DNA from: Actinophytocola xanthii
Lineage (GTDB): Bacteria > Actinomycetota > Actinomycetes > Mycobacteriales > Pseudonocardiaceae
DNA length: 64,000 nt
Direction: 5' to 3'
NCBI RefSeq assembly: GCF_001921205.1
Contig: NZ_MSIE01000032.1
Span: 1 to 64,000, forward strand
This document shows, piece by piece, positions 29,030 through 58,958 of this stretch (position 1 is the first letter of the stretch; each line of letters opens with the position of its first letter). Position numbers and translations under genes: made by a program. A model generated the notes under the pieces. The model saw only the letters and a list, made by a program, of their open reading frames with translations. It did no database searches and was not told the origin of the DNA.

Positions 29030-29150
29030 CGAAGGTCATGAGTGTCAGCGCCAAGCCCCGGCTCGCTGACCGGCAACCCTCCTACCGCGGTGGGGTGCCC
29101 CGGGTGAGGACCTGGCCCTCCGCGAGGTGCGGGCGGGCAAGCGCGGGCCC
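29030..29150 (+). promoter_or_regulatory. SAM-IV riboswitch
   Basis: The S-adenosylmethionine sensor of actinobacteria, in the 5' leader of the class V aminotransferase. P1 is formed by AGGTC (29033-29037) with GACCT (29109-29113). Between them are the conserved core segments CATGAGTGTCAGCG, CAAGCCCCGGC, GCTGACCGGCAACCCTCC and GGTGGGGTGCCCCGGGTGA. The 3' part (CCTCCGCGAGGTGCGGGCGGG) can form the extra P5 hairpin and pseudoknot that separates SAM-IV from SAM-I. The motif arrangement is recognised from memory of the family; a covariance-model search was not possible. Expected effect: high SAM lowers expression of the downstream gene. Confidence 0.85.
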
Positions 29151-54840: not shown

Positions 54841-56447
54841 GCGGCCCCAGCTGGGAGGCGCGTGCGGACCTGGTGGTCGTGGGCACCGGTGTCGCCGGGT
54901 TGACCGCGGCGCTGCGGGCGCGCGAACTCGGCCTGCGGGTGCTGGTGGTCACCAAGGAGGCGGCCGACGGCGGAAACACCCGCTGGGCCCAGGGCGGGGT
55001 CGCCGTGGTGCTCGGCGACATGCCCGACGACTCGGTGCGGCGCCACGTCGAGGACACCCTGGTGGCCGGCGGCGGCCTGTGCGATCTCGAGGCCACGACG
55101 CGAATCATCGGCGCGGGCCCGGCCGCGGTGGCCCGGCTCCGGGCACGCGGTGCGGTGTTCGACGGCCCACCGGAGCGGCTGGCGCGCACCCGGGAGGGCG
55201 GCCACACCGCCTTACGCGTCGTGCACGCCGGCGGCGACGCCACCGGGGCCGAGGTGGAGCGCGCGCTGCTGGCCGCGTCGCGGGACGGCGGGCTGCCCGT
55301 GCTGGAGCACCATGTCGCCGTCGACACCCTGCGCACGCCGGCCGGTGAGGTGGCCGGTCTGCTCGTGCTCGACGGCGACGGGGTGCCCGGGGTGCTCACC
55401 GCTCCCGCCGTGCTGCTGGCGACCGGCGGGCTCGGCCAGCTGTACCAGGCGACCTCGAACCCGGCGGTGGCCACCGCCGACGGCGTGGCCCTCGCGCTGC
55501 GGGCCGGCGCGCCCGTCCAGGACCTGGAGTTCGTGCAGTTCCACCCCACCGTGCTCTACACCGGCGAGGGCGCGCGCGGCCGGTGCCCGCTGGTGACCGA
55601 GGCCGTGCGCGGCGAGGGTGCGGTGCTGGTCGACTCGACTGGTGCCCGGGTGATGGCCGGCGTCCACCCGCTGGCCGACCTGGCCCCGCGCGACGTGGTG
55701 TCGGCCGCGATCAACCGCCGGCTGGCGGCGTTGGGCGAGGACCACGTGTTCCTGGACGCCACCCACCTGGACCGCCCCACGTTCGAGCGCCGGTTCCCCA
55801 CCGTGCTCGCGGCCTGCCAGGCCGCTGGCGTGGACCCCGTCGTGGACCCGATCCCGGTCTCGCCGGCCGCCCACTTCGCCTGCGGCGGCGTTATGTCTAC
55901 TGTGGACGGACGGACCGCGGTGCCCGGCCTGTACGCCGCGGGCGAGGTCGCGCGCACCGGGCTGCACGGCGCGAACCGCCTTGCCTCCAACAGCCTGCTG
56001 GAGGGCCTGGTCGTGGGAGCGCGCGCGGCCGAGGCGGTGGCGGCGGACCTGGCCGCCGCGCCGCGGGCCGAGCGGCGGCTCGCCGCGTGCCCGCCGGTGC
56101 CGGTGGCGCCGGCCGCCGGCCGCGACACCCTGCAGCGGGTGATGAGCCGCTACGCCGGCATCGGCCGGGACGCCGAAGGGCTCGCGGTGGTGGGCTCGGT
56201 CCTCGACGTGTCGGCCGTGGACCGCCCCCTGTCGAGCAGGGCGGCGGTGGAGGACGCCGCGCTCACCCTCACCGCGCGGGCCCTGATCGCGGCGGCGCAG
56301 GCCAGGACAGAGTCCCGCGGCTGCCACGTGCGCACCGACTTCCCGCAGGTCGACGAGGGCTTCGCGCACGGCCTGGCGGTGCGCCTCACCCCGTCCGGCC
56401 AACCGATGCTGGACCGTCCGGCGCTGCTGACCCGAGGAGCGGCATGA
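54837..56447 (+). CDS. nadB: L-aspartate oxidase NadB
   Basis: FAD enzyme that oxidises L-aspartate to iminoaspartate for NadA. 536 aa. The FAD loop is [14 protein letters not shown], followed by [13 protein letters not shown] (succinate dehydrogenase family), then [26 protein letters not shown] and [19 protein letters not shown]-terminal helical domain completes the family length. GTG 54837 overlaps nadA; the end overlaps nadC by ATGA. Confidence 0.95.
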
Positions 56448-57292
56448 CCGACCTGGACCTGGCGGACCTGCGCCGGGTGGTGGCGACGGCCCTGGAGGAG
56501 GACCTGCGCTACGGCCCGGACGCGACGACCGCGGCCACCGTCGCGGAGGCCACCGAGGCCGTCGCCGAGCTCACCCCGCGCGCCTCCGGCACGGTCGCCG
56601 GCGTCCCCGCCGCGCTGGCCGTGTTCGAGACGGTCCTGCCCGACGTCGAGGTGCTGTCCCGACGCGAGGACGGCGAACGGGTCGCCCCCGGTGAGCCTGT
56701 CCTGGTGGTCAGAGGCAGGGTCCGCGGCCTGCTGACCGCGGAACGCACGGCGTTGAACCTGCTCTGCCACCTGTCCGGCATCGCCACGGCGACGGCGGCG
56801 TGGGTGGACGCACTCGCCGGCACCGGCGCCGTGGTGAGGGACTCCCGCAAGACCCTCCCGGGCCTGCGCCTCCTCGAGAAGTACGCCGTCCGGTGCGGCG
56901 GCGGCAGCAACCACCGCCTGGGCCTGGGCGACGCGGTGTTGATCAAGGACAACCACGTCCTGGCGGCGGGTTCGGTCACCGCCGCCCTGACCGCGGCCCG
57001 CGAACACGCCCCGGACCTGCCCTGCGAGGTCGAGGTGGACACCCTCGACCAGCTGGACGAGGCACTGGCAGCCGGCGCCGAACTGGTCCTGCTGGACAAC
57101 TTCAGCCCGGAACAGTGCGCCGAGGCCGTCCGCCGGGTAGCCGACCGGGCTCTCACCACGAAGCTGGAGGTCTCCGGCGGCCTCACCCTGGCGGAGGCCA
57201 GACGCTACGCCGACACCGGGGTGGACTACCTGGCCGTAGGCGCCCTCACCCATTCCGCCCCAGCACTGGACATCGGCATGGACCTACGCTGA
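56444..57292 (+). CDS. nadC: Nicotinate-nucleotide pyrophosphorylase NadC (quinolinate phosphoribosyltransferase)
   Basis: Converts quinolinate and PRPP to nicotinate mononucleotide, the end of the local pathway. 282 aa. EDLRYGPDATT, AERTALNLLCHLSGIAT, DSRKTLPGLRLLEKYAVRCGGGSNHRLGLGD and VLIKDNH carry the PRPP/quinolinate Arg, His and Lys residues. LEVSGGLTLAEARRYADTGVDYLAVGALTHSAPALDIGMDL ends the barrel. The repeat array begins 3 nt after its stop. Confidence 0.96.
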   Translation: MTDLDLADLRRVVATALEEDLRYGPDATTAATVAEATEAVAELTPRASGTVAGVPAALAVFETVLPDVEVLSRREDGERVAPGEPVLVVRGRVRGLLTAERTALNLLCHLSGIATATAAWVDALAGTGAVVRDSRKTLPGLRLLEKYAVRCGGGSNHRLGLGDAVLIKDNHVLAAGSVTAALTAAREHAPDLPCEVEVDTLDQLDEALAAGAELVLLDNFSPEQCAEAVRRVADRALTTKLEVSGGLTLAEARRYADTGVDYLAVGALTHSAPALDIGMDLR

Positions 57293-57295
57293 CAA

Positions 57296-58027
57296 CCCCC
57301 ACCCACAAGCAAACCCCGCGCCACCCATGCAAAGCCGGTATGCACAACACCTAACTCCCCAGAACACCTAACCCCGCGCCAGCCGTTCCCCAAGTCGGGA
57401 CGCACCAACAGCCAACTCCCCAGAACACCTAACCCCGCGCCAGCCGTTCCCCAAGTCGGGACGCACCAACAGCCAACTCCCCAGAACACCTAACCCCGCG
57501 CCAGCCGTTCCCCAAGTCGGGACGCACCAACAGCCAACTCCCCAGAACACCTAACCCCGCGCCAGCCGTTCCCCAAGTCGGGACGCACCAACAGCCAACT
57601 CCCCAGAACACCTAACCCCGCGCCAGCCGTTCCCCAAGTCGGGACGCACCAACAGCCAACTCCCCAGAACACCTAACCCCGCGCCAGCCGTTCCCCAAGT
57701 CGGGACGCACCAACAGCCAACTCCCCAGAACACCTAACCCCGCGCCAGCCGTTCCCCAAGTCGGGACGCACCAACAGCCAACTCCCCAGAACACCTAACC
57801 CCGCGCCAGCCGTTCCCCAAGTCGGGACGCACCAACAGCCAACTCCCCAGAACACCTAACCCCGCGCCAGCCGTTCCCCAAGTCGGGACGCACCAACAGC
57901 CAACTCCCCAGAACACCTAACCCCGCGCCAGCCGTTCCCCAAGTCGGGACGCACCAACAGCCAACTCCCCAGAACACCTAACCCCGCGCCAGCCTTACCC
58001 AAGCCGGGACGCACAGGAGCTAACTCC
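57296..58027. repeat. Tandem array of a 61-bp repeat (10 identical copies plus decayed end copies)
   Basis: Ten copies in a row from 57357 to 57966, each 61 bp and identical base for base (unit starts CCCCAGAACACC and ends CAGCCAACT). Copy 0 (57296-57356) and copy 11 (57967-58027) are clearly related but diverged. The + strand unit has 29 C and 11 G, a strong skew. There are no spacers, so it is not a CRISPR array, and no gene. Because 61 is not a multiple of 3, the minus strand reads through three copies as one 60-codon frame whose TAG abuts the next GTG; this is a by-product of the period, not evidence of coding. It fills the gap between convergent nadC and a GNAT gene. Confidence 0.95.
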
Positions 58028-58208
58028 CTCGGGCGAGGTGAGGCCCGCGGCTGCGTGAGCGAGAGCGAAGGAGCGTCCACCGTCTGGACCGACGCAGCGC
58101 CCGCAGGCGCCCCAGGCGCCGAGGACGCGAAGGAGGGAAGACGGTGGGTCAGCGACTGAGCGAAGCGAACAAAAAAACACAGAACAAAGAACAAGGTCAC
58201 AAAAAATA
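58028..58208. other. Non-coding stretch with a long inverted repeat and an A-rich patch
   Basis: CCACCGTC (58077-58084) pairs with GACGGTGG (58140-58147), flanking an internal hairpin GGCGCC-CCA-GGCGCC. The + strand then becomes A-rich (58169-58209, including a run of seven A and a run of six A), very unlike the surrounding DNA. On the minus strand this is a T-rich tract just after the GNAT stop, so it could act as a terminator for that gene. No open reading frame worth reporting. Confidence 0.6.
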
Positions 58209-58823
58209 TCACCCCTCCCCAACCGCCCGAACCATGTCCGTGCAGCGGTCCGGGCGTCCAAGCTGGCCGGGCCAGCCCACGGCCGCCCAGAACGCCCGGG
58301 TGGCCGGCGAGTTGAGCACGGTCGTCGTCGACCAGTCGTACCCCTGCCCCGGTGGTGCGACAGCGAGCGCGGCGGCCACCAGGACCCGCCCGTAGCCGAG
58401 CCGGCGGTGTGCCTCGTCCACCCGAACCTGCTCGAGCACCGCCCGCCGACACGGCGCGCACACGGCGAGGTCGGCGTCGGCGACGACCACCCCGTCCAAC
58501 CGCATCCGCAGCTGCCCGACTCCCGCGCGCACCGCCGGCGGAACCCGCACGAGCACCAGGCCCACGTCGGGAGCCTGCTCCTCAGTGTGCTGTTCGGCCG
58601 GGTCGATCTCGCACCAGCTCGCCCCCGGCAGGCCGAGGTCCCAGCAGACCCCGCAGGTGACGGTGTCCAGCCGATGGCGGTGGCTGTAGCCGGCCTGCTT
58701 CCCGCCGATGGTCAGGTCGTGGCCGCGGGGGCACCACCGCCGGCCACCGTCCGGCGAGGTCGGCCGGACCGCGCGCGCCGTGCCGTACATGCCGCGACCG
58801 ACATCCCGACCCTGTTCGCTCAC
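58209..58823 (-). CDS. GNAT acetyltransferase with zinc-ribbon-like N-terminus
   Basis: 204 aa. GTG 58823 is chosen because CATAAT ends 7 nt upstream; it fixes a start the alternatives leave open. Residues 30-60 contain WCPRGHDLTIGG and TCGVCWDL, a C-x3-H...C-x2-C arrangement like a zinc ribbon, and a further CAPC pair lies later. The C-terminal part is GNAT-like: LEQVRVDEAHRRLGYGRVLVAAALAVA (acetyl-CoA loop) and SPATRAFWAAVGW. The substrate is unknown; the two parts suggest recognition of a macromolecule. Confidence 0.7.
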   Translation of the reverse strand: MSEQGRDVGRGMYGTARAVRPTSPDGGRRWCPRGHDLTIGGKQAGYSHRHRLDTVTCGVCWDLGLPGASWCEIDPAEQHTEEQAPDVGLVLVRVPPAVRAGVGQLRMRLDGVVVADADLAVCAPCRRAVLEQVRVDEAHRRLGYGRVLVAAALAVAPPGQGYDWSTTTVLNSPATRAFWAAVGWPGQLGRPDRCTDMVRAVGEG

Positions 58824-58830
58824 ATGTTCG

Positions 58831-58836
58831 ATTATG
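58831..58836 (-). promoter_or_regulatory. -10-like box of the zinc-ribbon GNAT gene
   Basis: Minus-strand CATAAT, seven bases, then the GTG at 58823. It lies in a 147-nt gap shared with the divergent P450. Confidence 0.5.
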
Positions 58837-58958
58837 ACCGCTACCCGGACTTCCACAACCCCTCTCACCAGCGAGTATGTCCGGCGCTACGACCAGCGAC
58901 CGACCGATGGACCAGAAAGCCGAGAAGTCGATCTCTCGGCTGGGGCGGGCCAGGGGCG

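What the first reader, a model, noticed from the sequence alone, without database searches (positions are those of the whole stretch)
57296..58027. Ten identical 61-bp tandem repeats in the only loosely packed convergent junction
Copies 1-10 are identical base for base while the two end copies have decayed. That pattern implies recent expansion or ongoing homogenisation, with selection or slippage at the core. Every other convergent pair in the window is 0-15 nt apart or overlapping, but nadC and the GNAT gene are separated by 916 bp filled by this array and the structured stretch after it. It has no spacers, no coding sense and no known repeat name that I recognise. Possible roles: a transcription barrier protecting nadABC, a protein-binding array, or a neutral VNTR.
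Basis: partly seen in the sequence, partly recalled or inferred. Interest (0 to 1): 0.85.

Follow-up and report, generated by a model that had tools for sequence, protein, structure and literature searches.

The report
Expanded tail of dispersed hairpin repeat
The ten identical 61-letter repeats are probably not a device for the neighbouring NAD-making genes: they are the locally multiplied tail of one copy of a small, hairpin-forming DNA element that is scattered through this bacterium and its relatives, and whose hairpin also turns up in other actinobacterial families.

Summary
The array is real: period 61, exact over 57353-57994 (10.5 copies), decayed edges. It belongs to a dispersed composite element. 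The last unit and the 'structured stretch' behind it match about 20 other places in the genome; unit-like DNA was found elsewhere only beside that stretch, in 1 to 7 degenerate copies. At the nadC-P450 locus 5 of 5 other Actinophytocola genomes lack array and element, but carry the downstream core elsewhere (8-41 matches). A role for nadABC is thus unlikely; the array is most probably a recent, near-neutral VNTR, or partly an assembly product.

The core is the interesting part: about 127 bp with a covarying hairpin and a nearly invariant purine-rich internal loop. In 72 congener sites it lies mostly between co-directional genes, sense 55, antisense 2, though the window's own genome lacks this bias (5 and 5). 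Nine of 12 queried A. oryzae junctions aligned, all empty. A hairpin-only model matches 21 of 394 genomes of the class. No Rfam family matches; five paper searches showed no description. It behaves like MIRU/BOX repeats.

The parts
56444..57292 (+). nadC, upstream neighbour
   Evidence: orthologues 77-85% identical in 5 of 5 congeners
57312..57405 (.). decayed left-edge units of the array
   Evidence: 57312-57405 is 88% like two units; copy 57345-57405 has 2 mismatches
57353..57994 (.). exact tandem array, period 61, 10.5 copies
   Evidence: exact self-match at offset 61; TRF 57345-58028, score 1305
57955..58015 (.). decayed right-edge unit, resembling the single-unit flank beside other copies of the element
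   Evidence: 14 mismatches in register; matches at other loci
58016..58055 (+). linker between the 61-bp unit and the core, shared with the long-type copies of this genome
   Evidence: L002-L006; sequences
58056..58182 (+). core of the dispersed element (TGAGCG...AAACACAG), about 127 bp
   Evidence: model R1 match 58057-58174, 103.8 bits, E 1.5e-22 (this copy is one of the rows of the model); ends read from the aligned copies
58076..58148 (+). hairpin with purine-rich internal loop (CTGGACCGACG...AAGGAGGGAAG); outer stem arms 58076-58085 and 58139-58148
   Evidence: inverted repeat 58077-58085 / 58139-58147; covariation
58209..58868 (-). GNAT acetyltransferase gene, downstream neighbour
   Evidence: PF00583 8.5e-06; not at this locus in the 5 congeners

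Best explanation
The array is a local, probably recent tandem amplification of the left-hand flank of one copy of a dispersed, non-coding intergenic element. Anatomy here: (61-bp unit)n - 40-bp linker - core of about 127 bp with a long hairpin. Shown: the family is dispersed, the unit goes with the core, the hairpin covaries, and sites are occupied in one species and empty in another. Inferred: the core is (or was) a mobile, non-autonomous element that settles between genes and spreads by an unknown machinery; its hairpin, as RNA or single-stranded DNA, is what is recognised; the 61-bp units multiply by replication slippage or unequal recombination, as other segments of the same family appear to do (37, 46, 57, 62, 119 and about 140 bp units at other loci); the array has no function of its own for nadABC beyond spacing or mRNA 3'-end effects.
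For: Own genome: 31 matches to the junction, with 40 of 46 candidates scored. They fall into 22 places: 9, the window included, with core plus unit-like flank (in two, L008 and L018, only part of the core is present, at a contig end), 11 with the core alone and 2 with a core fragment. A two-unit query finds unit-like DNA outside the window at C16, C30, C145, C46 and C33, each of these beside a core; three remaining matches (E 0.47-0.88) are 16-19 nt scraps. Degenerate unit arrays: L003 1.9, L004 6.8, L005 3.6 copies. Core in 6 of 6 genus genomes, 19/32/29/41/38/8 matches at E <= 0.01, none at E <= 0.001 in the 115 genomes of other genera in a sample of 120 of the family (31 candidates scored per genome). 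Hairpin: 94.9% of cells paired, 98 double-change cells against 36.9 in shuffles and 4-21 in slid controls. nadC-P450 synteny in 6 of 6, array and core absent in the 5 others. Of 12 G001 junctions queried, 9 matched across the joined flanks in G003 and all 9 lack the element. Other tandem units in the family.
Against: No transposase or other mover was identified; no target-site duplication was established; the empty-site query (flanks joined) favours finding empty sites. Exact identity of ten copies could be an assembly product, which would remove the 'recent expansion' argument. The 61-bp unit itself was not found in congeners (blastn, 40 candidates scored per genome), so nothing shows how it joined the core. 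On the G-rich strand a unit dimer folds better than shuffles (z -3.07, 1 of 200 as good), so a structural role cannot be excluded, although 18 distinct aligned units share no consensus fold.
Confidence: 0.8

Rival explanations
1. Local transcription barrier: the array and the hairpin stop convergent transcripts of nadABC and the GNAT gene.
For: It lies in the only wide convergent gap of the window; 7 of 18 sites in this genome are convergent; a sister copy of the core folds at -53.6 kcal/mol, z -3.43.
Against: No terminator-like pattern; absent from the nadC locus of 5 of 5 congeners; in congeners 55 of 72 examined sites are sense between co-directional genes, where a terminator would be harmful.
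Confidence: 0.1
2. Array of protein-binding sites (an iteron- or parS-like array).
For: Exact head-to-tail repetition.
Against: The three other unit arrays seen in the genome are degenerate (77-88% matches); unit-like DNA accompanies a dispersed core. Binding itself was not testable.
Confidence: 0.04
3. Mostly assembly artefact: a collapsed tandem loop written out as identical copies, with true copy number and true divergence unknown.
For: 204-contig draft; 4 of 22 family places lie at contig ends, 0.16 expected.
Against: The array has flanks on both sides inside a 122-kb contig, and decayed edge copies were kept.
Confidence: 0.15
4. The core is a cis-regulatory RNA (riboswitch-like) with a specific downstream regulon.
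For: Covarying hairpin, nearly invariant internal loop, sense orientation, position shortly before start codons. Among 20 downstream proteins scanned, 5 are ABC-transporter parts (L161, L163, L171, L192, L199).
Against: The other 15 of the 20 scanned (of 54 co-sense loci) are diverse: GHMP kinase, luciferase-like enzyme, sigma factor, NuoE-like protein, NO synthase domain, DinB-like polymerase, TilS, lumazine synthase and others. Only three junctions are shared between species among the fetched sites. Nine sites are empty in the nearest relative.
Confidence: 0.08

Closest known systems
MIRU (mycobacterial interspersed repetitive units) and MIRU-VNTR loci
   Same: Short units between genes of operons, sometimes as tandem identical copies (three identical 77-bp units in the senX3-regX3 gap of one strain: passages of PMC4213456). 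Recalled, not read: same orientation as the flanking genes, and spread into DTGA stop/start sites. Here: sense bias 55 to 2 in congeners, upstream stop RTGA in 28 of 39 against 77 of 176 baseline, empty sites with -4 overlaps in 3 of 7 co-directional cases.
   Different: No sequence comparison with MIRU was made. Here there is a conserved hairpin with a nearly invariant internal loop, found in other genera and families; in the window's own genome the sense bias is missing (5 and 5).
BOX elements of Streptococcus pneumoniae (boxA-boxB(n)-boxC)
   Same: Modular dispersed repeat with a module that may be absent or multiplied, predicted to fold into a stem-loop if transcribed; enriched between convergent genes (passages of PMC3049150), as 7 of 18 sites are in this genome.
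   Different: BOX has terminal inverted repeats and target duplications; here the multiplied module is at one end and I saw no terminal inverted repeat in the copies that I read.
ERIC / RUP / Correia-type small mobile repeats
   Same: About 100-200 bp, intergenic, base-paired transcripts (section 4 of PMC2229807).
   Different: Most of those listed have terminal inverted repeats and TA ends; not seen here.
REP elements with RAYT (Y1_Tnp) transposases (recalled)
   Same: Palindromic, intergenic, many copies per genome.
   Different: No Y1_Tnp match in 6 of 6 genus genomes; the unit is about 127 bp with one asymmetric hairpin.

Membership tests
VNTR / minisatellite within a dispersed repeat (MIRU-VNTR kind) | head-to-tail copies of one unit at one locus | tested here: met
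VNTR / minisatellite within a dispersed repeat (MIRU-VNTR kind) | copy number differs between strains | not testable with these tools
   no second strain of this species was available; other loci in the genome have about 1 to 7 units
MIRU | sequence homology to mycobacterial units | not tested
   no MIRU sequence was fetched
MIRU | orientation like the flanking co-directional genes (recalled feature) | tested here: inconclusive
   met in five congeners (55 sense, 2 antisense of 72 sites) but not in the window's genome (5 and 5 of 18)
MIRU | insertion at DTGA stop/start overlaps (recalled feature) | tested here: inconclusive
   RTGA 28 of 39 against 77 of 176, p 0.0013; empty sites -4, -4, -4, -8, 4, 6, 125 nt; no exact duplication shown
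REP/RAYT | Y1_Tnp transposase in the genome | tested here: not met
   0 of 6 genomes; 5 of 14 control genomes positive
CRISPR | unique spacers between repeats | tested here: not met
   period equals unit length, 61
Rfam-listed RNA families | a match at the element | tested here: not met
   window at gathering threshold: only SAM-IV at 29034; 11 element loci at relaxed thresholds (E up to 5 and 2): nothing at the element
Intrinsic terminator | hairpin followed by a T run | tested here: not met
   0 found at 57200-58300

The most novel reading that the evidence does not exclude
The hairpin is the signature of an undescribed, class-wide family of actinobacterial mobile elements: a tiny element with no gene, defined by a nearly invariant purine-rich internal loop (5' CUGGACUGASGAG / 5' ASGAGGGAAG, which I read as tandem G.A pairs) inside freely covarying stems. 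A dedicated protein or an RNA activity recognises it. It slips into stop/start overlaps of operons in sense orientation and carries its own stop codon, Shine-Dalgarno-like stretch and start codon, so that the operon goes on working. The 61-bp array is one such copy whose flank is running away by tandem amplification.
Probability: 0.4. Interest if true: 0.8.

Novelty: new variant of a known kind. Interest (0 to 1): 0.6.

Why it matters
As a tandem array the finding is ordinary. What it leads to is not: a hairpin family with covariation evidence, matches in 14 of 138 sampled genera of one bacterial class (two of these by a single weak match) and no Rfam entry. How small intercistronic repeats such as MIRU spread is, to my knowledge, unsolved. 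A family with a sharply conserved loop, filled and empty sites in sister species, and named cultured hosts gives a handle to find the mover and to test what the hairpin does to an operon's mRNA. For annotators, such elements shift start and stop calls: in some copies the upstream frame runs through the hairpin, or the called start lies inside the element.

Tried and rejected
Riboswitch-like regulator: held unlikely, since downstream genes are mostly unrelated, though 5 of 20 are ABC-transporter parts. REP/RAYT: no Y1_Tnp in 6 genomes. Conserved structure of the 61-bp unit: 18 distinct units share no consensus fold (-0.83 and -0.24 kcal/mol on the two strands; the MAFFT alignment is poor in its second half), though a unit dimer of this array folds well on the G-rich strand. 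Plasmid and phage collections: no match for the junction (plasmids) nor for one element of another family (plasmids and phages). Pattern scan of the named-genome collection: 74 stretches, 46 in Actinophytocola; the 28 others gave only two weak R1 matches (16.7 and 19.5 bits, E 0.22 and 0.047), so most or all are probably chance. Regex-only core extraction missed most copies and was replaced by nhmmer. Paper searches for this or a similar actinobacterial repeat: of which I saw listings and abstract beginnings; nothing describing it was seen, in a library that lacks most subscription journals. Searches looked for MIRU papers; I did not find the original MIRU paper there and cite it from memory.

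Full report
THE OBSERVATION. The array exists as described. Tandem Repeats Finder reports period 61, 11.2 copies, at 57345-58028. The sequence equals itself at offset 61 without exception over 57353-57994, 642 bp, i.e. ten complete identical copies in a suitable register; in the register of the TRF consensus nine units are exact, the first has 2 and the last 14 mismatches. Similarity to the unit reaches left to 57312. nadC ends at 57292, the GNAT gene at 58209; the gap is 916 nt, and the other seven convergent gaps of the window are -20 to 45 nt by my gene calls. The gene caller is a simple codon-usage script of my own, trained on the window, so starts are less certain than stops.

IT IS NOT LOCAL. 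Searching the whole junction against its own genome (8.34 Mb, 204 contigs) gives 31 matches, with 40 of 46 candidates scored. Most begin at query position 608 or later, that is in the last units or in the stretch behind them. They fall into 22 places: 9, the window included, with a core preceded by a 40-bp linker and unit-like DNA (two of these, L008 and L018, hold only part of the core, at a contig end); 11 with the core alone; 2 with a core fragment. L003 has 1.9, L004 6.8 and L005 3.6 units, 86, 88 and 77% matching. A query of two units finds, outside the window, unit-like DNA at five of these places and three 16-19 nt scraps at E 0.47-0.88. The array is therefore the multiplied flank of one composite copy.

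THE LOCUS IN RELATIVES. The genus is Actinophytocola (G001 algeriensis, G002 gossypii, G003 oryzae, G004 a MAG, G005 xinjiangensis, inferred from equal contig lengths). nadC is followed by the same cytochrome P450 gene in all 5 others; a TetR gene lies between them in 3 (G001, G002, G004) and none in 2; none has the array, the core or the GNAT gene there. Among the five, only G003 has a relative of the GNAT protein at E <= 1e-20, on another contig.

THE CORE. A model (R1) from 42 aligned copies of the six genomes has 25 base pairs. 94.9% of cells pair (85.1% in shuffles), and 98 cells carry changes on both sides (36.9 in shuffles; 4 to 21 when partners are slid by 1-3 columns). The rows are related, so the shuffle counts are not probabilities; the slid control is the safer one, although the structure was derived from one of the rows. 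Leaving out two columns that are mostly G.U, wobble cells outnumber A.C cells 42 to 12, and 26 to 2 in the wider alignment A2 with one such column left out, which points to folding of the sense strand. Between the outer and the inner stem lies a purine-rich internal loop. Its position 18-74 in A2 is G-C in 18, C-G in 10 and U-A in 1 of 29 rows, never unpaired. Next to it UG with AG changes to GU with GA in 2 of 29 rows, a coupled exchange of non-canonical partners. The inner stems of A2 were left out of its structure because MAFFT could not align them. That the loop stacks tandem G.A pairs is my reading of the sequence, not a computed structure.

DISTRIBUTION. R1 finds 19, 32, 29, 41, 38 and 8 matches at E <= 0.01 in G000-G005, some of them weak and in a second subfamily (150 candidates scored per genome). 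Of 120 family genomes 5 match at E <= 0.001, all of this genus (31 candidates scored each). By plain DNA similarity 14 of 150 family genomes match, 8 of them outside the genus with scraps of 31-64 nt (4 candidates scored each). In 296 genomes of the class R1 hit G000 and 4 genomes of one other family (f18), these only on the hairpin part, model 20-89 (12 candidates scored each). Reading the 12 places in those four shows unrelated flanks and different inner stems but nearly the same loop. Three of them (G310, G360, G437) have a single match at 6e-5 to 7e-4 and may be chance; with 394 genomes about 0.4 false ones are expected at that cut, and the E-values are rough. Rfam has nothing at the element in the loci tested.

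WHERE IT SITS. I fetched 76 regions of the five congeners chosen from the 148 R1 matches; 5 loci (L196, L197, L198, L237, L238) gave no core at the stricter nhmmer cut and were dropped, leaving 72 sites. Co-directional sense 55, co-directional antisense 2, convergent 5, divergent 8, edge 2. 55 against 2 has p 2e-14 under equal odds, not corrected for relatedness. Gene pairs without the element in the fetched loci, own ones included: co-directional 166, divergent 31, convergent 17. In the 55 sense cases the upstream stop lies at a median of 0 nt from the element (range -665 to 253, negative where the called frame runs into it), and the downstream start at a median of 22 nt after the model's end (-19 to 533). 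Against this: in the window's own genome the 18 sites are convergent 7, sense 5, antisense 5, edge 1, so the bias is absent there. In other families the 12 places are ++ 9, +- 2, -+ 1, and the 40 are ++ 21, -- 7, +- 7, -+ 5; sense prevails 30 to 7, more weakly.

STOP/START SITES AND EMPTY SITES. Left ends in congeners often read GTGAGCG, and right ends often end in RACACAG; in many copies TGA of the left end is the upstream gene's stop, and in some an ATG at the right end or in the right arm is the called start. The upstream stop is RTGA in 28 of 39 sense sites where it lies within -12 to +40 nt of the element (8 of the other 15), against 77 of 176 other stops in the same loci, Fisher p 0.0013. 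Twelve G001 junctions with the element removed were searched in G003; 9 matched across the join, all 9 without the element; 3 gave no match. The joined query favours empty sites, and one further G001 junction (L170) is occupied in G003 (L201). In G003 the seven co-directional ones among the nine have gaps of -4, -4, -4, -8, 4, 6 and 125 nt, the two convergent ones -39 and -23. Among the fetched sites three junctions are occupied in two species, one of them in opposite orientation. This is the picture of an element that comes and goes, preferring tightly coupled genes. Exact duplications could not be read at 86% identity.

TANDEM COPIES ARE A HABIT OF THE FAMILY. Besides the 57-61 bp units: 37 bp x2 (L015, L016, L057), 46 bp x6.2 (L037), 62 bp x2 (L014), 119 bp x4, i.e. 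the whole core (L034), and a second subfamily with long stems in an array of about 140-bp units (L215). Slippage or unequal crossing-over is the simplest cause; it is inferred.

WHAT IT DOES. For the array I see no evidence of function: no gene, no promoter or terminator pattern, no conserved fold of the unit. For the core, conservation of the loop inside changing stems across families suggests that something recognises it. The neighbours (20 of 54 downstream proteins scanned) are mostly unrelated, 5 being ABC-transporter parts, which argues against a metabolite switch. A mobile, non-autonomous element whose hairpin is the recognition site fits best. Orientation could matter because the antisense strand harms operons; that is a guess to be tested.

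COMPARED WITH WHAT IS KNOWN. In its behaviour it resembles MIRU (tandem units between operon genes: passages of PMC4213456; DTGA insertion recalled) and the modular BOX element with its multiplied boxB (passages of PMC3049150), within the general class of small mobile repeats (abstract and section 4 of PMC2229807). It is not shown to be a member of any of them, and REP/RAYT is contradicted by the absence of Y1_Tnp. Hence 'new variant of a known kind' for the family, while the 61-bp array taken alone is an ordinary VNTR.

CONFIDENCE. That the array is part of a dispersed composite repeat: about 0.95. That it is a near-neutral expansion: about 0.75. That the hairpin family is a real structured element spread over several actinobacterial families: about 0.9. 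That it is mobile by a dedicated machinery: about 0.5.

Noticed in passing
L266-L277 and L308-L347 (genomes G364, G390, G236, G165, G502, G509, G180, G524, G471, G423, G447, G407, G194): Hairpins with nearly the same internal loop but different stems and flanks, several copies in most of these genomes, often with a second small hairpin behind (by eye) and an AACACAG-like end (27 of 63 downstream stretches against 4 of 63 upstream).
   Followed up: partly
L215, L216, L217, L218: A second Actinophytocola subfamily with long inner stems; an array of about 140-bp units in L215; L216 and L218 lie at contig ends.
   Followed up: partly
L178 and L230: The same divergent gene pair carries an element in two species, in opposite orientation.
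   Followed up: no
L164/L191 and L170/L201: Two co-directional junctions are occupied in two species each; L170 has one copy where L201 has two in tandem.
   Followed up: partly
window 29034-29149: SAM-IV riboswitch, the only Rfam match in the window at gathering threshold.
   Followed up: no
window 58209-58868: The GNAT gene stands where three of five congeners have a TetR gene between nadC and the P450 gene.
   Followed up: no
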